From the NCBI GenBank assembly GCA_012270125.1, contig JAAXIY010000069.1, positions 1 to 36,218 on the forward strand: a DNA stretch of 36,218 bases, given 5' to 3'. Made by a program: the position numbers and the translations under genes. Shown here piece after piece: positions 26,844-36,218 of this stretch. Position 1 is the first letter of the stretch. Each line of letters opens with the position of its first letter. This stretch comes from Paracoccaceae bacterium (lineage in GTDB: Bacteria > Pseudomonadota > Alphaproteobacteria > Rhodobacterales > Rhodobacteraceae). The notes beneath the pieces were generated by a model that did no database searches, had not been told where the DNA came from, and worked only from the letters and a program-made list of their open reading frames with translations.

Positions 26844-27764
26844 ATGCAAATCTATCTCCCCATTGCCGAAGTTTCAGTCAACGCTTTCCTTTTACTTGGC
26901 TTGGGTGGCATTGTTGGTGTTCTTTCTGGGATGTTTGGTGTTGGTGGTGGTTTTTTAATGACCCCACTGCTTTTCTTTATTGGTATCCCTCCAGCTGTTG
27001 CAGTAGCAACAGAAGCCAACCAGATTGTTGCGTCTTCATTTTCGGGAGCGCTGGCTCATCTGAAACGGAAAACAGTCGACCTTAAAATGGGTCTAATTCT
27101 CTTGATAGGAGGCTTATTAGGCGCTGGACTAGGTTTGATTATTTTCAATTACCTCAAAAGTCTTGGACAAGTCGATTTGCTTGTTAAACTTTGCTACGTA
27201 GCTTTTTTGGGAATTATTGGAAGCCTGATGTTCATCGAAAGTTTGCGGGCACTTTTGAAAAAAGAAAATGGGTCAACACCAAAAAAAATTCGTAAGCAAA
27301 GAGGCTTTGCTCAACAATTACCTTTCAAAATGCGTTTCAGAACCTCGGGATTGTACATTTCTATAATACCTCCCATCTTTGTCGGAATCTTTGTCGGTGT
27401 CCTGTCAGCGATTATGGGCGTTGGCGGCGGTTTTATCATGGTACCAGCCATGATTTATATTTTGGGTATGCCAACAAAAGTTGTAGTGGGCACATCACTT
27501 TTCCAAATTATATTTGTTACGGGTTTTACCACATTATTGCACGCAACAACAAATTACACAGTTGACGTTGCTTTGGCTGTACTATTGCTTTTGGGCGGCG
27601 TAGTTGGAGCGCAGGTTGGAAGCCAGCTTGGAACTAGACTACGAGCAGAACAATTACGTATTCTTTTGGCACTGATGGTCATAGCAGTATGTTTGAAAAT
27701 TGCCCTAGACTTATTAATTATGCCAGGTGAGCTTTATTCAATTAGCAAAGCGAGCCTAAAATAA
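26844..27764 (+). CDS. TauE/SafE family sulfite/sulfoacetate-type exporter
   Basis: TauE/SafE proteins are inner-membrane carriers linked to export of sulfite or sulfonated products. The 306-residue protein shows the internal duplication typical of the family: GVLSGMFGVGGGFLMTPLL near residue 25 and GVLSAIMGVGGGFIMVPAM near 185, with about eight membrane segments. AAAGG precedes the ATG. The next gene starts on the last base of its stop (TAATG). The substrate cannot be read from sequence, but a predicted sulfite-releasing gene cluster lies about 4 kb downstream, so sulfite export is a reasonable guess. Confidence 0.88.
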   Translation: MQIYLPIAEVSVNAFLLLGLGGIVGVLSGMFGVGGGFLMTPLLFFIGIPPAVAVATEANQIVASSFSGALAHLKRKTVDLKMGLILLIGGLLGAGLGLIIFNYLKSLGQVDLLVKLCYVAFLGIIGSLMFIESLRALLKKENGSTPKKIRKQRGFAQQLPFKMRFRTSGLYISIIPPIFVGIFVGVLSAIMGVGGGFIMVPAMIYILGMPTKVVVGTSLFQIIFVTGFTTLLHATTNYTVDVALAVLLLLGGVVGAQVGSQLGTRLRAEQLRILLALMVIAVCLKIALDLLIMPGELYSISKASLK

Positions 27765-28519
27765 TGATTAGGCTTATCCTATTATTTTTGATATCAACTT
27801 CTTCCGCATTTGCAGAAAGTGTTGTGATTGGGATGGACAAAGAAAAAGTAGCCATAACGGCAACTTTTGATGGATCCCAAATTCTATTATTTGGAGCTGT
27901 TAAAAGAGATAAGCCGGCACCCATCGGCGATCTTCAAGTAATCGTTACGGTAGCTGGTCCTTCAGAGAGGATTTCTGTTCACAGAAAATCAAAAGTTTTA
28001 GGGATTTGGATGAATACAGAAACTGTAGAAGTAGACGCTGCACCCAGTTTTTATGCTGTCGCGACAAGCTCTAATTTTCTATCAACTATAAGTGATACAG
28101 AAGATCTTAGGTATAAAGTTTCTATACCCAGAGCAATTCGCTCCGTTGGTGCGCCTATGAATGTATTGGATGCTGTTTCGTTTTCAGAGGCCGTTATAAG
28201 GATTAGAAAAGAGCAAGGATTGTATAAATTGCTAGAGAATACGGTAGAGATCGACGAGCAAACCTTATTTCGAACCTCAATTGGCATGCCTGCGGATATA
28301 TCTGAAGGTGATTATACCGCGCGCATTCTCCTGACCAGAAATGGAAATGTAATTGATGAATTCTCTACTGTCATTGATGTAAGAAAAGTTGGTCTAGAGC
28401 GTCTGTTATTTAATATGTCTAGAGAAAACCCACTAGCGTATGGTCTTATGTCACTTGCGATTGCTATATTCGCTGGATGGGCAGCCTCGCTATTATTCAG
28501 ATTTTTCAGAACTACCTAG
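27764..28519 (+). CDS. TIGR02186 family protein, predicted membrane-anchored periplasmic partner of TauE
   Basis: The 251-residue protein has an N-terminal signal sequence (MIRLILLFLISTSSAFAES), a periplasmic domain of about 200 residues rich in predicted beta strands, and a C-terminal membrane helix (about 226-245: YGLMSLAIAIFAGWAASLLF) with a short cytoplasmic tail. It resembles the TIGR02186 family of conserved hypothetical proteins found beside TauE-like genes in Rhodobacterales and Rhizobiales. The one-base overlap with the exporter gene implies coupled synthesis, so an accessory role in the same process is likely. No catalytic motif is apparent. It converges on the SDR gene with a 4-base overlap. 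Confidence 0.78.
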   Translation: MIRLILLFLISTSSAFAESVVIGMDKEKVAITATFDGSQILLFGAVKRDKPAPIGDLQVIVTVAGPSERISVHRKSKVLGIWMNTETVEVDAAPSFYAVATSSNFLSTISDTEDLRYKVSIPRAIRSVGAPMNVLDAVSFSEAVIRIRKEQGLYKLLENTVEIDEQTLFRTSIGMPADISEGDYTARILLTRNGNVIDEFSTVIDVRKVGLERLLFNMSRENPLAYGLMSLAIAIFAGWAASLLFRFFRTT

Positions 28520-29863: not shown

Positions 29864-30949
29864 CTAGAAATTAACCACTTTTCCGGTTTCAGCAGAAACT
29901 TGTGCGGCATTACCCATTCTTACAGCCCAGATACCATCATTCAAAGTCACCTCTGGTGATTGATGTCCGTCTACAACACGCATAAATTTTTGATGTTGAT
30001 AAAACGTAGAGCCATTGTGATCACCTGCTTCTAATATCATTTCGTCTACGGGCACATCAAATTCTCTTAAACCAGACTTGTCTCTTGGACTAACAACTAT
30101 TTTTGGTATCGGAGGAGCACCAAGTTTCTTGGGCCAAAATCTAGCGGGGCCTGGAACAAAAGCTTCTATTTTACCTGTATCTCCAGTAATTGATATCTCT
30201 TCTTGATACTTTGCACCCTCTGCAAACATACACAATTCAAGCATGGCCCTCATATTATTTTCAAACTCAACAATTACATATCCATGATCCCAAATATCTG
30301 GCACCAAACCAGAGTAATTTTCTTTAAGATGATTAACGGCCTGCCCTCCACTAGCCATTATCTTGGTTGGGTTAGACCCGGTTATCAGCCTCATTAAATC
30401 AAAAAAATGGCAACATTTTTCCACAAATGTGCCACCACTGTTTTTGTTAAATCTATTCCAGTCATCGACTTTTGGAAGAAAAGGAAATCTATGTTCACGG
30501 ATAGAAAGCATTTTAATACCACCAGTCACATTATTTTGCCTTTTAATAAGTTCTGCTATGGGCGGCATATATCGATATTCCATAGCTACCCAAACAGGCG
30601 CACTATATTTGATTGAGAAGTTTTTTATTCTCTCCAAGTGTTTAATTTCAGTGAATAAGGGCTTTTCTACCAGTATGGGTCTATGAGGAATACCGGCCAA
30701 TTGTTCCAACTGATCCATATGGAGATGGTTTGGCGACACTATTAACCAACAATCAATATTTTCATCACTCAAAATTTTATCTAGGGAGTCATAAAACTTG
30801 GCGTTTGGAGCAAGTTTTTTTGCCATTTTCTGCATATTTATATTAGGTTCATAAATCGCATAAGCTATAGCGTCATTGATTAAATTTATGTTGCGAAGAT
30901 GCTCCTGTCCCATCATTCCACAACCTATAATTCCGTATCTTTTTATCAT
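29864..30949 (-). CDS. Gfo/Idh/MocA family protein; candidate NAD+-dependent sulfoquinovosidase
   Basis: The 361-residue protein has an N-terminal Rossmann domain with GIIGCGMMGQEH (7-18), the EKP motif (95-97) and a C-terminal alpha/beta domain with GGTFVEKCCHFFDLMRLITG (172-191), which includes the putative active-site K178 and H181. It has no signal peptide. Such proteins are usually sugar or inositol dehydrogenases, but families GH109 and GH188 use this fold and a tightly bound NAD+ to cleave glycosides. GH188 enzymes release sulfoquinovose and occur in Roseobacter clusters lacking GH31, which fits this context. The frame extends to 31075, but ATG at 30947-30949 has a perfect AGGAG and lies seven bases after the regulator gene. 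Dehydrogenase function remains possible. Confidence 0.8.
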   Translation of the reverse strand: MIKRYGIIGCGMMGQEHLRNINLINDAIAYAIYEPNINMQKMAKKLAPNAKFYDSLDKILSDENIDCWLIVSPNHLHMDQLEQLAGIPHRPILVEKPLFTEIKHLERIKNFSIKYSAPVWVAMEYRYMPPIAELIKRQNNVTGGIKMLSIREHRFPFLPKVDDWNRFNKNSGGTFVEKCCHFFDLMRLITGSNPTKIMASGGQAVNHLKENYSGLVPDIWDHGYVIVEFENNMRAMLELCMFAEGAKYQEEISITGDTGKIEAFVPGPARFWPKKLGAPPIPKIVVSPRDKSGLREFDVPVDEMILEAGDHNGSTFYQHQKFMRVVDGHQSPEVTLNDGIWAVRMGNAAQVSAETGKVVNF

Positions 30950-30956
30950 AATGCTC

Positions 30957-31658
30957 CTAACTGATACGCGCAGTATAGCGTGCAACCTTTGTATCGATCC
31001 AACTACGTGAAAACTCAACAGGCGCTCCAAATTGATCGTTCGCCAAACGCTCAATACAAACCGTCTCATTATCATGCGCTAATTTAAATTCCTCGGGTGC
31101 CCAAGAAGGAACTGGCAGTAAAGTCGCACTATCTTTAGCTGACATAATGCGCAAATTTAAAGTATCTTTATAAAAAAGATAAACTGACTGTGAAATTTGA
31201 TCAAATTTATGCCCATTAGTTTTCATAGAATCTAAGTGTATTTCTTCCAATACGCAGGGTTGGTCGTCGAGGAAACGTAATCGTCTAATCCGCAGGCACT
31301 TATTTGATTCTCCAAAAAACGGTGCAGTTTTTGGCTTCTGAACCAAATTGATATCTAAATTTTTTGCAGAAGGCAAACCTCCGCCATCAATTAATTCAAC
31401 TCTAAAAAACGAGTAAATAGAGTCAAACTTTGTATTGAATTTTACATAATTACCTGAACCATGCTTGCGAAATAGCGCACCTTTTTGTTCAAGGTCTTTT
31501 AAAGCTTTTCGCAATGTTCCAACAGAAATATTGAGTGACTTAGCTAAATTTCTTTCGGGCAAAAGACGTTCTCCATCCAATAAACGACCAGCTATAATTT
31601 CTCGCATAAGCATTTCGCTAATTTGGATGTATATTGGTAAAGAAGTAGCTTCAGACAT
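30957..31658 (-). CDS. GntR family (HutC/UTRA) transcriptional regulator
   Basis: The 233-residue regulator has an N-terminal winged helix-turn-helix (about 8-75: IYIQISEMLMREIIAGRLLDG, ERLLPERNLAKSLNISVGTL, and the wing GALFRKHGSGNYV) and a C-terminal UTRA ligand domain (about 85-230) of chorismate-lyase fold. Such proteins usually repress adjacent genes until a metabolite binds. Possible starts include GTG at 31694 and ATG at 31682; ATG at 31658 is preferred because it places MSEATSLPIYIQI directly before the first helix and leaves a GTGTA/TACAC repeat upstream. It is followed by the Gfo/Idh/MocA gene and divergent from the monooxygenase gene, so it probably controls both directions. Confidence 0.87.
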   Translation of the reverse strand: MSEATSLPIYIQISEMLMREIIAGRLLDGERLLPERNLAKSLNISVGTLRKALKDLEQKGALFRKHGSGNYVKFNTKFDSIYSFFRVELIDGGGLPSAKNLDINLVQKPKTAPFFGESNKCLRIRRLRFLDDQPCVLEEIHLDSMKTNGHKFDQISQSVYLFYKDTLNLRIMSAKDSATLLPVPSWAPEEFKLAHDNETVCIERLANDQFGAPVEFSRSWIDTKVARYTARIS

Positions 31659-31671
31659 GTTTAAACAACGT

Positions 31672-31694
31672 GTGTAATTCATAAATTGATACAC
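31672..31694. promoter_or_regulatory. Possible GntR operator between regulator and monooxygenase genes
   Basis: GTGTA (31672-31676) and TACAC (31690-31694) are exact inverted arms separated by 13 bases. GntR-family sites are typically built on GT...AC half-sites, and this one lies 14 bases before the regulator start and 53 before the divergent gene. The arms are short, so chance is not excluded. Confidence 0.35.
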
Positions 31695-31747
31695 TATTGA
31701 TTTACATAAGTTGGAATGCTACGCAAGATGTAAGATTAGGGGGAAGT

Positions 31748-32902
31748 ATGACCGTAGTACCAATTACATCTTCTGACTTAATGGCCGCGGAAGTTTCTTG
31801 GTTTTCAGCCTTGTGTTCGGACGATTACCAATTTTTAGGAATACCCGACGGTAACCTTCGTAGTTCGTGGGAGCATTGTAGTTCAATCGTCAAAGAAGCA
31901 GAAAACTATGGCTTTCGAAATATACTGTGCCCTTCTTCTTATCAGGTTGGACAAGACACATTAAGCTTTGTTGCTGGCTGCGCACCAATAACAGAAAAAA
32001 TTAACATGCTCGCAGCGGTAAGATGCGGAGAAATGCAACCCATAATGCTTGCTCGCACTATCGCCACTCTAGATCATATGATGAACGGTCGGTTAACCAT
32101 CAATATTATTAGTTCTGATTTTCCAGGAGAAAAGGCTGAAAGTGGGTATCGATATCAGCGCTCACGAGAAGTAGTGGAAATCTTGAAGCAAGCTTGGACC
32201 CAGGATGAGATTGATTATGAAGGTGAGATTTACAAGTTCTCAGGCCTTACAACAGAACCTTCAAAACCATTTCAAGTAGGAGGGCCATTACTTTATTTTG
32301 GTGGATATTCTCCACCAGCCCTTGAATTGTGCGGACAGCATTGTGACGTCTATCTGATGTGGCCAGAACCTAAAGAACAGATAATTGGAAGAATGAAATC
32401 TGTTAATGAAGTGGCTGAAAAATATGAAAGAACCCTCGATTATGGGCTGCGCGTCCATATGATTGTTAGAGATACCGAAGCAGAAGCAAAAGAGTATGCT
32501 GAATATATAGTATCAAAGCTTGAGGATGACTTTGGAAAAAAAATAAGAGAACGCGCTCAGGATAGCTCGTCATTGGGAGTCTCACACCAAGCAAAAAATA
32601 GAAAAATTGCTGATGAATTCGGTTACGTCGAACCTCATCTTTGGACTGGAGTTGGTAGAGCAAGATCTGGGTGTGGCGCTGCTATTGTGGGATCCACCGA
32701 TCAAGTGATGAGTGAATTAGAACAGTATCAAAAATTGGGAATCCGTTCTTTTATCCTGTCTGGGTATCCTCACCTTGATGAATGCAAACATTTTGGCTCA
32801 AAGGTCTTGCCAAATATAAAAACTTGCTCTTTACCGCATGAATATGGACGAGTTCCAGAAAGTACACCTTCAACTCCACTCGGGCTAGGAGAGCGCCACT
32901 AA
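31748..32902 (+). CDS. smoC: SsuD-like FMNH2-dependent sulfonate monooxygenase; probable sulfoquinovose monooxygenase
   Basis: This 384-residue luciferase-like monooxygenase closely follows the SsuD pattern: AAVRCGEMQPIMLARTIATLDHMMNGR in the TIM-barrel core (part quoted), INIISSDFPGEK, YFGGYSPPALELCGQHCDVYLMW, and the C-terminal TGVGRARSGCGAAIVG (mobile-loop region) and FILSGYPHLDE. SsuD cleaves the C-S bond of alkanesulfonates, giving an aldehyde and sulfite. Next to a YdhF-like reductase, a flavin reductase and a sugar importer, the closest known arrangement is SmoC of Agrobacterium, which turns sulfoquinovose into 6-oxo-glucose. The ATG at 31748 has AGGGGGA upstream; an earlier TTG-type opening is less likely. 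The next gene starts on its stop (TAATG). Simple alkanesulfonates remain alternative substrates. Confidence 0.82.
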   Translation: MTVVPITSSDLMAAEVSWFSALCSDDYQFLGIPDGNLRSSWEHCSSIVKEAENYGFRNILCPSSYQVGQDTLSFVAGCAPITEKINMLAAVRCGEMQPIMLARTIATLDHMMNGRLTINIISSDFPGEKAESGYRYQRSREVVEILKQAWTQDEIDYEGEIYKFSGLTTEPSKPFQVGGPLLYFGGYSPPALELCGQHCDVYLMWPEPKEQIIGRMKSVNEVAEKYERTLDYGLRVHMIVRDTEAEAKEYAEYIVSKLEDDFGKKIRERAQDSSSLGVSHQAKNRKIADEFGYVEPHLWTGVGRARSGCGAAIVGSTDQVMSELEQYQKLGIRSFILSGYPHLDECKHFGSKVLPNIKTCSLPHEYGRVPESTPSTPLGLGERH

Positions 32903-33792
32903 TGCAACGAACTAAAATCAGCTCATCGCTTACAATGTCACGTTTGGTCTATGGAATGTGGAGATTGGGTGATGACCAGGACACATCGCCTGAGCACGTG
33001 CGCAATAAAATATCAAGTTGTTTACATCAAGGAATAACCTCTTTTGATCAGGCTGATATATATGGTGGCTATGAAGCTGAAGAAATTTTAGGAAATGCAC
33101 TCAAAGGATCACATCTCCGTAAAGAAATGGAGATTGTTACTAAGTGCGATATTGTAGCACCAGTAGGCAGGTATAAGAGTGCTCGAGTAAAATACTATGA
33201 CACTTCAAGAGATCATATTTTAAAATCAGTAGACGCATCATTGAAGCTCATGGGCATCGACTATATCGACTTGCTTCTACTCCATAGGCCAGACCCGCTG
33301 ATGGATCACTTTGAAACTGGTGCAGCTCTTGATGAAATAATTGCATCTGGCAAAGTAAGAAATGTGGGTGTTTCCAACTTTAAGCCTTGGGATTGGAACT
33401 TATTGCAAGCTGCAATGAAGAATAAACTTGTTACCAATCAAATTGAATTAAGTGTGCTAGCACACGAGGGCTTTACAAATGGCGATGTAGCATTTCACCA
33501 AACTCATAATACTCCTATTATGGCTTGGTCTCCTTTAGCTGGAGGGGACTTATTTTTAAAATCAAATGAAAAGCTTTTAAATAGTCTGAGTAATATCGCA
33601 GATACATTTGGTGTCGAACCAAGTACAGTAGCAGTAGCCTGGCTTCTCGCACACCCTGCCAATATTCTACCCGTTCTAGGAACAAATTCTTTGTCACGAA
33701 TAGAAACAATTTCTCAGGCTTTAGATATCAAATTGGATAGACAAACCTGGTTTGAAATTTATACAACCGCGCTTGGACGCGAAGTTGCTTAG
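32902..33792 (+). CDS. smoB: YdhF-like aldo/keto reductase; probable 6-oxo-glucose reductase
   Basis: The 296-residue AKR has the catalytic tetrad D49, Y54, K81 and H128 (in FDQADIYGG, IVTKCD and LLLLHRPDPLMD). The C-terminal end shows the cofactor-binding pattern PVLGTNSLSRIETI. The overall sequence resembles E. coli YdhF. In the Agrobacterium sulfo-SMO pathway, SmoB is an NADPH-dependent AKR that reduces the 6-oxo-glucose released by SmoC to glucose. The start codon shares a base with the stop of the monooxygenase gene, so the two are translated together, which supports the paired role. The substrate assignment rests on this context. Confidence 0.82.
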   Translation: MQRTKISSSLTMSRLVYGMWRLGDDQDTSPEHVRNKISSCLHQGITSFDQADIYGGYEAEEILGNALKGSHLRKEMEIVTKCDIVAPVGRYKSARVKYYDTSRDHILKSVDASLKLMGIDYIDLLLLHRPDPLMDHFETGAALDEIIASGKVRNVGVSNFKPWDWNLLQAAMKNKLVTNQIELSVLAHEGFTNGDVAFHQTHNTPIMAWSPLAGGDLFLKSNEKLLNSLSNIADTFGVEPSTVAVAWLLAHPANILPVLGTNSLSRIETISQALDIKLDRQTWFEIYTTALGREVA

Positions 33793-33813
33793 TGACTGTG
33801 GAAGTAGAGTTAA

Positions 33814-34275
33814 ATGATTAATCAGGATGACTTCAGATCTGCTTTAGGAAAATACGTAACAGGTATTACAATTGTTACCTGTAATAGCAAAAACGGTCCA
33901 ATAGGCATTACGGCTAATAGCTTTTCAAGCTTATCTTTATCACCTCCATTAGTTTTATGGTCTCCTGCAAAGGCTTCCAAAAGGCATGATACCTTTTTAG
34001 AGGCTGAAAAATTTATAATTCATATTGCTAACGAAGACCAAATTGAGCTCTGCAAAAGCTTTTCAAAGAGTGCTGATGGCGGAGATGGAGTAAATTGGGA
34101 GTTCAATAATGAAGGTGAAGCTTTCATCAAAAATTGTTCCGCGCGCTTTGAATGCATAAAGTATAATCACTTCGATGGAGGAGATCATTCAATCATCGTA
34201 GGGGAAGTGAAAAAGTTTGAAACAACGGACCATAAGCCGTTAGCCTATTGGGGGGGTGCTTACACAAAACTTTAA
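33814..34275 (+). CDS. smoA: Flavin reductase family protein; probable FMN reductase partner of the monooxygenase
   Basis: The 153-residue protein is a single flavin-reductase-like split-barrel domain: FRSALGKYVTGITIVTC, the FMN-contact stretch GITANSFSSLSLSPPLVLW, FIIHIANEDQIELCKSFS and the C-terminal HSIIVGEVKKFE with PLAYWGGAY. Such enzymes use NAD(P)H to make free FMNH2 for two-component monooxygenases. It lies 21 bases after the aldo/keto reductase, with GGAAG before the ATG, completing the SmoC-SmoB-SmoA set. It is not related to the flavodoxin-like SsuE reductase. The pyridine nucleotide preference cannot be read. Confidence 0.85.
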   Translation: MINQDDFRSALGKYVTGITIVTCNSKNGPIGITANSFSSLSLSPPLVLWSPAKASKRHDTFLEAEKFIIHIANEDQIELCKSFSKSADGGDGVNWEFNNEGEAFIKNCSARFECIKYNHFDGGDHSIIVGEVKKFETTDHKPLAYWGGAYTKL

Positions 34276-34360
34276 TTTTCTATTTAATTCCGAAATATGA
34301 AGACAAAAAAATTTAAATAGATTTTACTTTTTTTGTTTTTATATCGCCAAACTTTTATAA

Positions 34361-34374
34361 TTGACCTTGGTCAA
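34361..34374. promoter_or_regulatory. 14-bp perfect palindromic site upstream of the sugar-binding protein gene
   Basis: TTGACC-TT-GGTCAA has exact 6-base arms around two bases. It lies in the 220-base gap 34276-34495, about 12 bases upstream of the first AGCGCT-centred site, and may bind a GntR-type or other dimeric regulator. Confidence 0.4.
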
Positions 34375-34385
34375 CTTTTAGAGTT

Positions 34386-34420
34386 TGGTAGCGCTATCAA
34401 CAGTGTAAATTTTAGCGCTT
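34386..34420. promoter_or_regulatory. Tandem AGCGCT-centred operators, LacI-family type
   Basis: TTGGTAGCGCTATCAA (16 bases within 34385-34400) is a palindrome with one mismatch per arm and has the CG-centred form of LacI/GalR operators. A second AGCGCT core lies at 34414-34419, centred 24 bases downstream, in a weaker palindrome. No LacI-family gene is in the window. Confidence 0.55.
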
Positions 34421-34432
34421 AAACTTTACAAA

Positions 34433-34460
34433 TTGGGTCTTCTTATGACTTGATTTTAAT
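34433..34460 (+). promoter_or_regulatory. Tentative promoter of the sugar-binding protein gene
   Basis: TTGGGT (34433-34438) and TTTAAT (34455-34460) are 16 bases apart, giving a start about 30 bases before the ATG. The -35 is weak. The LacI-type sites lie just upstream. Confidence 0.3.
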
Positions 34461-34495
34461 GTAACTGAAATGTTTCAACTCTTGGGAGGAAAAGA

Positions 34496-35839
34496 ATGAA
34501 ACTTAATACTAAAACTTTAAGCATCACAGCTGCTCTATCCTTGGGCTTCGGTTCAATGGGTATCGCGGGCTCTCACGATGTTTGCAATACACCTTCTAAA
34601 TTAGGCGATATGGGAAGCTTTCCCGGTGAAGTCATAACTATGCAAGGATCAATGCTAGGCACTGACCAAGAAATGTTAGAAAACACCATTAGTTGCTTTG
34701 AAAAAGCAACTGGTGCGAAAGTTCAATATTCTGGCTCTCGTGACTTTGCAGCGCTCGTAGTTGCTGATATGCGTTCAAACAACCCACCTAACATTGCCAT
34801 CTTTCCACAGCCTGGTCTTGCAGCCGATATGGCAGCAGAAGGCCATTTAGTGCCTATTGGGGACGACGCAGCCGCATGGATGAAAGACAATTACGGTGCA
34901 GGCTCTTCTTGGGTAGACCTCGGAACCTATGCAGACCCTAATGGTAACGACCAATTCTATGGTTTTGCCTTTAAAATGGATTTAAAATCATTGGTCTGGT
35001 ATTCACCCGAACAGTTTGAAGACAACGGTTATGAAATTCCATCCACTATGGAAGAACTCATTGCTTTATCCGATCAGATGGTAGCTGATGGAAATACACC
35101 TTGGTGTATTGGTGTTGAGTCTGGAAACGCTACAGGTTGGACCGCAACCGACTGGATGGAAGACATCATGCTTCGTACTACTTCAGCTGAAAACTACGAT
35201 CGTTGGGTTTCAAACGATTTAGCATTTAACAGCCCTGAAGTGATCAATGCTATGGAACTTTATGGTCAATTCTCTCGAAACGATGATTACGTTGCGGGTG
35301 GAGCAGCTTCAGTAGCGACGACTTCATTTGGTGATGCACCAAAAGGTTTATTCACATCGCCTCCAAGTTGTATGATGCACCGTCAAGCTTCCTTCATCAC
35401 TGGATTCTTTCCTGACAAAGGTGAGGAAGTTGCCCGCGGTGAAGCAGATGCATTTTATTTTCCACCTTTTGCATCTGGAAACCTAGGAAACCCAGTTCTT
35501 GGTGCTGGAACATTGTATACTATGGCAAAAGACTCTCCAGCGACCCGTGCATTCTTTAAGTATTTACAAGAAGCTTCAGCACATGAGGCGTGGATGCAGC
35601 AAGGTGTATTCCTTACAGCTCATAAGGGTGCTGACTTAAATGCTTACGCAACACCTCTATTAAGAAAGCAAGGCGAGATCCTAGCAAATGCTACTACGTT
35701 TCGCTTTGATGCATCAGACTTGATGCCTGGTGCTATCGGTGCTGGCGCTTTCTGGAGTGAAATGACCGCGTTCGCAAACGGCCAGGATGCAAAAACAACT
35801 GCTGACAATATTCAAGCAGCTTGGGATGCTATAAAGTAA
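34496..35839 (+). CDS. aglE: AglE-type alpha-glucoside ABC transporter substrate-binding protein
   Basis: The 447-residue periplasmic receptor belongs to the family 1 extracellular solute-binding proteins and closely follows the AglE pattern of Rhodobacterales: FEKATGAKVQYSGSRDF, NPPNIAIFPQPGLAADMA, WMKDNYGAGSSWVDLGTY, TPWCIGVESGNATGWTATDW, GAGTLYTMAKDSPA and TTFRFDASDLMPGAIGAGAF. An export signal occupies about residues 1-26 with cleavage near AGS. A strong GGGAGG precedes the ATG. AglE proteins bind alpha-glucosides such as trehalose or sucrose. Sulfoquinovosyl glycerol is an alpha-glucoside too, so with the upstream smo-type genes it may be the ligand, but an ordinary alpha-glucoside operon beginning here cannot be excluded. 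A hairpin follows the gene. Confidence 0.9.
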   Translation: MKLNTKTLSITAALSLGFGSMGIAGSHDVCNTPSKLGDMGSFPGEVITMQGSMLGTDQEMLENTISCFEKATGAKVQYSGSRDFAALVVADMRSNNPPNIAIFPQPGLAADMAAEGHLVPIGDDAAAWMKDNYGAGSSWVDLGTYADPNGNDQFYGFAFKMDLKSLVWYSPEQFEDNGYEIPSTMEELIALSDQMVADGNTPWCIGVESGNATGWTATDWMEDIMLRTTSAENYDRWVSNDLAFNSPEVINAMELYGQFSRNDDYVAGGAASVATTSFGDAPKGLFTSPPSCMMHRQASFITGFFPDKGEEVARGEADAFYFPPFASGNLGNPVLGAGTLYTMAKDSPATRAFFKYLQEASAHEAWMQQGVFLTAHKGADLNAYATPLLRKQGEILANATTFRFDASDLMPGAIGAGAFWSEMTAFANGQDAKTTADNIQAAWDAIK

Positions 35840-35859
35840 TATAGCTAAACGAGTATGGT

Positions 35860-35887
35860 AAGAGCACAGGAAAAAACCTGTGCTCTT
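35860..35887 (+). terminator. Strong hairpin after the sugar-binding protein gene
   Basis: AAGAGCACAGG (35860-35870) pairs perfectly with CCTGTGCTCTT (35877-35887), 11 bp, with an AAAAAA loop and a T-rich tail. As in the BMP operon, it sits between receptor and membrane-protein genes and would raise receptor output relative to the rest. Confidence 0.82.
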
Positions 35888-35914
35888 ATTCTTTAATTTG
35901 GGGCAAAAAATTTA

Positions 35915-36218
35915 ATGCGTTCTGTTCAATCAATAATTTTTAGTAACAGCTTAGCCATCGTTCTCACGATAGTTTGCGTATTACCAATTACTGCTGTCTT
36001 TGTATTTTCTCTAACTGCTCCCATAGATGACGCTTTTGCAAATTTTGGCCTTTGGCTTCACAACAAATATGAATGGTCTGTAGCAACTTTTGTGACAGAA
36101 TTGAGATTTGCGAAAGTTGGTTTTGCTTTACGTTCTGTTTTGATAGCTTTGTTCATCTCATTTTTATATTACTGGATCACAAATTGGCTTAACTTTGGGC
36201 TAGCTAATTTCAGATCGA
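35915..36218 (+). CDS. Membrane protein, probable ABC sugar transporter permease (N-terminal part only)
   Basis: An open frame starts at ATG 35915 and runs off the window without a stop, giving 101 codons. It begins MRSVQSIIFSNSLAIVLTIV, with a first hydrophobic helix at about 9-35, a soluble stretch, and a second helix at about 76-92 (SVLIALFISFLYYWITNWL). Its place after an AglE-type receptor predicts the AglF permease. The second helix resembles the N-terminal helix of AglF proteins, but the preceding 70 residues are not what I expect at an AglF start. The frame may therefore use a later start, carry an N-terminal extension, or be another membrane protein. No alternative ATG is present in the visible part. 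Confidence 0.5.
   Translation, partial: MRSVQSIIFSNSLAIVLTIVCVLPITAVFVFSLTAPIDDAFANFGLWLHNKYEWSVATFVTELRFAKVGFALRSVLIALFISFLYYWITNWLNFGLANFRS

What the first reader, a model, noticed from the sequence alone, without database searches (positions are those of the whole stretch)
29864..36218. Probable sulfoquinovose monooxygenase (sulfo-SMO) gene cluster in a Roseobacter-like genome
Seen: a GntR regulator, a Gfo/Idh/MocA protein, an SsuD-like monooxygenase, a YdhF-like aldo/keto reductase, a short flavin reductase, an alpha-glucoside-type ABC receptor and a membrane protein. The three enzymes are packed with 1-base and 21-base junctions. Known: Agrobacterium uses SmoC (SsuD-like), SmoB (AKR) and SmoA (flavin reductase) with a sugar-type ABC importer to convert sulfoquinovose to glucose and sulfite. 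Inferred: this cluster does the same in a marine, AT-rich Rhodobacterales cell, tying it to breakdown of algal and cyanobacterial sulfolipid. The order, the divergent regulator and the AglE-type receptor differ from the Agrobacterium arrangement.
Basis: partly seen in the sequence, partly recalled or inferred. Interest (0 to 1): 0.86.

Follow-up and report, generated by a model that had tools for sequence, protein, structure and literature searches.

The report
Marine sulfolipid-sugar cluster, swapped importer
A small-genome marine bacterium carries the known gene set for breaking the plant and algal sulfolipid sugar sulfoquinovose down to glucose and sulfite, but where most close relatives have a dedicated importer it has an alpha-glucoside transport operon that may do the importing instead.

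Summary
The core is a complete sulfoquinovose (SQ) monooxygenase cluster: SmoC is 75% identical to solved 7olf and 7oh2 and falls in their clade, away from SsuD. SmoB matches 7bby/7bbz; SmoA is a flavin reductase. This core is already in print as near-universal in Roseobacter-clade sulfo-SMO clusters, so it is ordinary.

The unexpected part is the importer. The "AglE receptor" opens an aglEFGAK alpha-glucoside operon. In 295 family genomes SmoC occurs in 123. A smo-type TRAP receptor or a second ABC receptor occurs in 109 of 113 SmoC genomes without the window's AglE type, but in 1 of 10 with it. That AglE type is a supported clade and always co-occurs with SmoC; canonical AglE shows no such exclusion. 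So AglEFGK may have replaced the usual importer (inferred, about 0.5). Against this, agl has its own operator candidates, keeps its glucosidase, lies on other contigs than smo in 4 of 10 genomes, and relatedness was not corrected for. No activity was tested.

The parts
29864..30949 (-). sqgA: Gfo/Idh/MocA-fold protein of the GH188 NAD+-dependent sulfoquinovosidase family
   Evidence: phmmer: 8zn9 E 3.5e-150, 8qc2 E 3.6e-102, 8qc3 E 1.9e-100; residues corresponding to those named in PMC10755693 present
30957..31658 (-). GntR/UTRA regulator, divergent from smoC
   Evidence: Pfam PF00392, PF07702; same place and orientation in 76 of 80 loci
31659..31747 (.). intergenic stretch between gntR and smoC, presumed divergent promoter/operator region
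   Evidence: position only; no consensus promoter found; inverted repeats weak
31748..32902 (+). smoC: FMNH2-dependent sulfoquinovose monooxygenase
   Evidence: 75% identity to 7olf and 7oh2 over 384 aa; tree
32902..33792 (+). smoB: aldo/keto reductase, 6-dehydroglucose reductase
   Evidence: 7bby E 4.2e-118 over the full length
33814..34275 (+). smoA: short flavin reductase
   Evidence: PF01613; 38-84% identical to flavin reductases at the same place in the 80 loci
34387..34422 (.). two near-palindromes GGTAGCGCTATC (34387-34398) and TTTAGCGCTTAA (34411-34422), LacI-type operator candidates of the agl operon
   Evidence: the TAGCGCTA core of the first is kept 109-111 bases before aglE in 8 of 8 subclade-A rows examined; WAGCGCTW is not enriched over chance in the window
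34496..35839 (+). aglE-type ABC sugar receptor (candidate SQ/SQ-glycerol receptor)
   Evidence: PF01547; supported clade apart from canonical AglE; pattern of occurrence
35915..36218 (+). aglF-type permease, N-terminal part; continues past an N gap outside the window
   Evidence: full-length counterparts in relatives

Best explanation
The cluster encodes oxidative desulfurisation of sulfoquinovose. SqgA (GH188) releases SQ from SQ-glycerol with NAD+ as catalytic cofactor. SmoC, fed FMNH2 by SmoA, cleaves the C-S bond with O2 to give sulfite and 6-dehydroglucose. SmoB reduces that to glucose. GntR controls the divergent units. These steps are inferred from homology to characterised enzymes. The importer is most likely the adjacent AglEFGK alpha-glucoside ABC system, which in this lineage stands in for the TRAP or ABC importer of relatives. 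That step is inferred from the pattern of occurrence only and I give it about 0.5. The confidence below is for the SqgA-SmoABC pathway.
For: SmoC, SmoB and SqgA match solved proteins over nearly their full length. SmoC groups with 7olf/7oh2 and not SsuD. The eight GH188 residues named in PMC10755693 are present, in frame, in the window and in 77 of 77 relatives that have the gene (placed by sequence alignment and motif). GH31 was not found in the window's genome, as reported for Roseobacters. Gene order is conserved. Importer: the smo-type TRAP receptor or the L074-type ABC receptor is found in 109 of 113 SmoC genomes without the window's AglE type, but in 1 of 10 with it (Fisher p 5e-10; post hoc, relatedness not corrected). 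Canonical AglE shows no exclusion: TRAP in 61 of 97 against 13 of 26, L074-type in 38 of 97 against 3 of 26. The window's AglE type is in 10 of 295 genomes, all 10 with SmoC. agl follows smoA in 9 of 9 genus genomes whose SmoC is 93-100% identical.
Against: No activity data. For the importer: agl keeps its alpha-amylase family gene in relatives L003 and L008, and the window's contig shows its start. It has its own palindromic operator candidates, and the core motif does not occur before smoC. Of the 10 genomes, agl is beside smo in 5 (G000, G005, G190, G130, G060), on other contigs in 4 (G238, G285, G301, G154), and undecided in G212 on short contigs. G154 also has TRAP. G285 has a branched-chain-type ABC importer downstream of smoA. 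Canonical AglE also co-occurs with SmoC (97 of 173 against 26 of 122), so co-occurrence alone says little. The AglE label needs 3 changes on the rpoB tree and the well-supported branches force only 1, so the 10 genomes are not 10 independent cases.
Confidence: 0.92

Rival explanations
1. The agl genes are an ordinary alpha-glucoside operon that happens to lie beside smo; SQ enters through another importer not recognised here.
For: agl keeps the GH13 gene and ATPase in L003 and L008. A conserved palindrome lies before aglE. aglR (LacI) separates smo and agl in L010 and L185. AglE of this type is on other contigs than smoC in 4 of 10 genomes. Canonical agl operons also lie near smo in Tateyamaria beside a TRAP importer. 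Genus subclade B has another ABC importer next to sqgA (L141), and G285 a branched-chain-type one near smoA.
Against: In the 295 genomes this AglE type is found only with SmoC (10 of 10) and in 1 of 10 with either of the two other smo-associated receptors. Canonical AglE shows no such exclusion. In G238 four and in G301's cluster (L078, the same locus) two neighbouring genes were identified and none is a transporter; the other neighbours were not scanned.
Confidence: 0.45
2. The monooxygenase is an alkanesulfonate-specific SsuD and the cluster scavenges sulfur from simple sulfonates.
For: Same luciferase-like superfamily; TIGR03565 (SsuD) is the best NCBIfam model, but at 239.5 bits against a cut-off of 518.2.
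Against: 75% identity to 7olf and 7oh2 against 36-37% to two SsuD proteins; tree. It lies with SmoB- and GH188-type genes.
Confidence: 0.03
3. The Gfo/Idh protein is a sugar dehydrogenase or epimerase and not a sulfoquinovosidase.
For: Pfam and NCBIfam see only the Gfo/Idh fold.
Against: Near full-length match to 8qc2/8qc3 and the GH188 residues, including the sulfonate-binding R, L and K.
Confidence: 0.05

Closest known systems
Roseobacter-clade sulfo-SMO cluster with GH188 sulfoquinovosidase (Kaur et al. 2023, PMC10755693, parts 1-3 of 4 read)
   Same: sulfo-SMO genes with a GH188 gene; in the relatives examined here the same order sqgA, gntR, smoC, smoB, smoA
   Different: 56 of 80 related loci have TRAP genes after the smo genes; here aglEFGAK stands there
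Agrobacterium sulfo-SMO cluster (Sharma et al. 2022; the paper was not held; details recalled or from passages of PMC9594981)
   Same: SmoC, SmoB and SmoA chemistry
   Different: GH188 in place of the GH31 sulfoquinovosidase; GntR; different importer; different gene order (recalled)
aglEFGAK alpha-glucoside operon of Alphaproteobacteria (name and substrates recalled)
   Same: Receptor, two permeases, GH13 enzyme and ATPase in the same order
   Different: AglE belongs to a separate clade; no AglR gene and no CAAAGCGCTTTG site at this place
SsuD/SsuE alkanesulfonate monooxygenase
   Same: Two-component flavin monooxygenase logic
   Different: SmoC is in a separate clade

Membership tests
Sulfo-SMO pathway | SmoC monooxygenase of the SQ clade, not SsuD | tested here: met
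Sulfo-SMO pathway | SmoB aldo/keto reductase in the same cluster | tested here: met
Sulfo-SMO pathway | Flavin reductase in the cluster | tested here: met
Sulfo-SMO pathway | SQ to glucose and sulfite in vitro or in vivo | not testable with these tools
   needs an assay
GH188 sulfoquinovosidase | Sequence match to FlSqgA/ArSqgA | tested here: met
GH188 sulfoquinovosidase | Lys, Tyr, Glu, His, His around SQ and sulfonate Arg/Leu/Lys (placed by sequence, not by structure) | tested here: met
GH188 sulfoquinovosidase | NAD+-dependent cleavage of SQ-glycerol | not testable with these tools
   needs an assay
SmoF-type SQ-glycerol ABC receptor | Sequence similarity to solved SmoF | tested here: inconclusive
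   18 phmmer matches at E up to 10, none named as SmoF; SmoF was not used as a query and its presence in the copy was not checked
Smo-type TRAP importer (DctP) | DctP like that of TRAP-type smo clusters in the window's genome | tested here: not met
   best match in the window's genome 25% identity, E 9.2e-14
aglEFGAK operon | Receptor, two permeases, GH13, ATPase in order | tested here: met
   in relatives L003 and L008; in the window's own contig only up to the first 56 codons of the GH13 gene
aglEFGAK operon | AglR regulator in the window's genome | tested here: not met
   best LacI-type match 27% identity

The most novel reading that the evidence does not exclude
A distinct AglE clade with its AglFGK partners is a third importer type for sulfoquinovose or sulfoquinovosyl glycerol, not seen in the papers searched here. 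It replaced the TRAP and ABC importers in several lineages of marine Rhodobacteraceae, partly by horizontal transfer, and may take in alpha-glucosides and the chemically similar sulfo-glucoside through one transporter.
Probability: 0.45. Interest if true: 0.55.

Novelty: new variant of a known kind. Interest (0 to 1): 0.38.

Why it matters
The core adds one more marine lineage with a known route for sulfolipid sugar breakdown, including the enzyme family that frees SQ from its glycerol glycoside. If AglEFGK is the importer, SQ users cannot be recognised by their importer alone, and small-genome ocean bacteria may share one importer between alpha-glucosides and the sulfolipid head group. That can be tested in the cultured strain HIMB11, which has the same smo-agl arrangement (L008).

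Tried and rejected
SsuD reading: rejected by identity and tree. TauE (26844-27764) as part of the cluster: not adopted, because at the equivalent place it was seen only in L006, L148, L153 and L154 (L006 and L153 are the same genome region), while the SDR and thioesterase genes beside it are in all genus subclade-A loci. Shared operator between the smo and agl promoters: not found; WAGCGCTW occurs twice in the window, both before aglE, against 2.62 expected by chance, so only its conservation speaks for it. No terminator or convincing promoter between smoA and aglE. AlphaFold model of AglE with six rows: mean pLDDT 40.1, unusable, no fold search made. The first rpoB tree took wrong ORFs for some rows and was redone; G005, G013, G130 and G212 gave no rpoB match, and G047 gave a partial one and was left out, so 25 of 30 genomes are in the tree. 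A look for residues that set the AglE clade apart found several, for example R82 and G279 in place of D and R, but without a model they cannot be placed in the binding site and carry no weight. Own-genome search with the L074 receptor was empty, and the tool warns that an empty answer alone shows nothing; the later family search with the same query rang in 49 of 295.

Weak points of the importer test: the AglE identity limit (77%) and the L074 query were chosen after seeing earlier results. The L074-type marker is soft: of the 36 SmoC genomes that have it and lack TRAP and the window's AglE type, it lies within 15 kb of smoC in 15, against 70 of 74 for TRAP. Counting only linked L074 matches would weaken the exclusion. 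A first count of GH188 motifs searched three frames; it was redone in frame.

Literature: PMC10755693 read in parts 1-3 of 4; PMC11465081 part 1 of 2; passages only of PMC13372026, PMC12890257, PMC9594981 and PMC13219744. PMC12661815, PMC11837527 and PMC4148974 were searched for terms and none occurred. Liu 2023 (PMC9938184), Sharma 2022 and Ma 2025 (PMC12780224) are not held and were not read; they may describe importers. Searches for an agl-type or TRAP SQ importer in print: 0 papers; 26 papers, 15 listed; 8 listed; nothing of the kind in the titles and abstract starts listed.

Full report
What is there. Family scans give GntR/UTRA, Gfo/Idh/MocA, luciferase-like monooxygenase, aldo/keto reductase, flavin reductase and an extracellular solute-binding protein. 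The window is the first 36218 bases of a 38377-base contig of a 2.16 Mb, 85-contig genome. It stops where a 100-N gap begins; beyond lie the rest of an AglF-type permease, an AglG-type permease and the first 56 codons of a GH13-type gene.

Core enzymes. SmoC matches 7olf at E 9.5e-209 and 7oh2 at E 1.6e-205 and is 75% identical to each over 384 residues. It is 36-37% identical to two SsuD proteins, and three SsuD proteins fall outside with 100/100 support in a 38-row tree; a group of Novosphingobium and Rhizobium proteins of about 50% identity, of untested function, lies between. SmoB matches 7bby/7bbz from end to end at E 4e-118 to 5e-118, far ahead of YdhF at 2e-56. SmoA is a short flavin reductase. 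That 7olf, 7oh2, 7bby and 7bbz are the Rhizobiaceae Smo proteins is recalled; the PDB copy calls them methanesulfonate sulfonatase, alkanesulfonate monooxygenase and aryl-alcohol dehydrogenase.

The Gfo/Idh protein matches 8zn9 (E 3.5e-150, named only 'oxidoreductase, putative'), 8qc2 (E 3.6e-102) and 8qc3 (E 1.9e-100). PMC10755693 gives 8QC2 and 8QC3 as the NAD+-dependent sulfoquinovosidases FlSqgA and ArSqgA, family GH188. The paper names Lys107, Tyr136, Glu189, His193, His321 and the sulfonate-binding Arg166, Leu170 and Lys172. The corresponding residues (K95, Y124, E176, H180, H310, R153, L157, K159 as counted) are in the window protein and in 77 of 77 relatives with the gene; they were placed by sequence, not by structure. 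No GH31 gene was found in the window's genome, while the same search rang in 6 of 14 control genomes. The paper reports near-universal GH188 genes in Roseobacter sulfo-SMO clusters. The core is therefore known.

Conservation.

Importer. In 56 of the 80 loci TRAP genes (DctQ, DctM or DctP) follow within 7 kb of smoC, 8 of 80 have the window's AglE type, and 16 show neither in the stretch held. Annotated examples are Ruegeria sp. TM1040 and Rhizobium sp. SL42, both with a 'putative sulfate exporter' nearby. In the window's genus and in HIMB11 the place is taken by aglE-aglF-aglG-aglA(GH13)-aglK. Across 295 genomes of the family: SmoC in 123, smo-type DctP in 101, the L074-type ABC receptor in 49, AglE of any type in 183, of which 10 are of the window's type (77% identity or more; the next is 63%). 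All 10 have SmoC. In SmoC genomes a DctP or L074-type receptor is present in 109 of 113 without the window's AglE type and in 1 of 10 with it (Fisher p 5e-10; post hoc, relatedness not corrected). Canonical AglE shows no exclusion: DctP in 61 of 97 against 13 of 26, L074-type in 38 of 97 against 3 of 26 (the 26 include the 10). Four SmoC genomes have none of the three (G105, G175, G237, G258). In the genus, a SmoC of 75% identity or more is found in 13 of 16 genomes, the window's AglE type in 14 of 16, and the best DctP match in any of the 16 is E 1.1e-27 at 29% identity.

Linkage is mixed. Of the 10 genomes with the window's AglE type, agl is beside smo in 5 (G000, G005, G190, G130, G060), on other contigs in 4 (G238, G285, G301, G154) and undecided in G212. 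G285 has a branched-chain-type ABC importer downstream of smoA, which could be a rival importer there.

History. The window's AglE type is one clade (100/99, 22 rows against 33). Its branching differs from rpoB: in the AglE tree G238 lies among the rows of the window's genus (100/100) and G060 next to them (98/93), while in rpoB G238 is outside the group of G000, G001 and G190 (85/90) and G060 pairs with G064 (89/78). The rpoB support is modest, so transfer is likely but not proved. The rpoB tree needs 3 changes of the label, and its starred branches force only 1.

A split arrangement. In genus subclade B (G001, G002, G003, G011, G013) a SmoA-like flavin reductase, 46-48% identical, still heads the agl genes in 5 of 5 loci, but smoC and smoB are not next to it. 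In G001, G002, G013 and G015 a 75-76% identical smoC with smoB, gntR and sqgA sits elsewhere, with no smoA match in the stretch fetched (L139-L142, some near contig ends). L141 has another ABC importer near sqgA, which could be an SQ importer too.

Regulation. Canonical agl operons carry the exact palindrome CAAAGCGCTTTG before aglE in 11 of 14 loci, as do the window-type operons that keep AglR in L185 and L191. In the window's genus (subclade A) a TAGCGCTA-centred site stands 109-111 bases before aglE in 8 of 8 rows examined; it is absent in the 5 subclade-B rows and in HIMB11. No close AglR was found in the window's genome (best LacI-type match 27%). This suggests that agl has its own LacI-type control and is not driven by the smo GntR, which speaks against a pure SQ role. 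The short motif is not enriched in the window.

Conclusion. The finding is a sound call of a known pathway. The new element is the pattern that makes AglEFGK the likely stand-in importer. It is correlative and rests on few independent events, about three on the rpoB tree.

Noticed in passing
L143-L147 (five genomes of the window's genus): A SmoA-like flavin reductase (46-48% identical) heads the agl genes although smoC and smoB are not there; in some of these genomes a divergent smoC-smoB cluster lies elsewhere, with no smoA in the stretch fetched.
   Followed up: partly
L275 (rpoB of the window's genome, contig 34): The rpoB gene carries one in-frame TGA, splitting it into open pieces of 1163 and 221 codons; probably an assembly or sequencing error.
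   Followed up: no
L074:11617-16485: A second ABC importer type follows smoA in some relatives; its receptor type is in 36 of 40 SmoC genomes that lack both the TRAP receptor and the window's AglE type, and phmmer matches it only weakly to solved sugar receptors.
   Followed up: partly
window 26844-28519: TauE/SafE exporter and TIGR02186 pair upstream of the cluster, seen at this place in only some genus members; could export sulfite.
   Followed up: partly
aglE upstream regions in L025, L034, L036, L039, L185, L191-L195, L197, L198, L200: Exact palindrome CAAAGCGCTTTG before aglE, a likely AglR operator.
   Followed up: yes
L025, L034, L035, L036, L039, L067: Genes of a canonical agl operon (in L067 only its GH1 and AglR genes were seen) lie near the smo cluster in several Roseobacters, in five of these six beside a retained TRAP importer, so agl and smo are recurrent neighbours.
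   Followed up: partly
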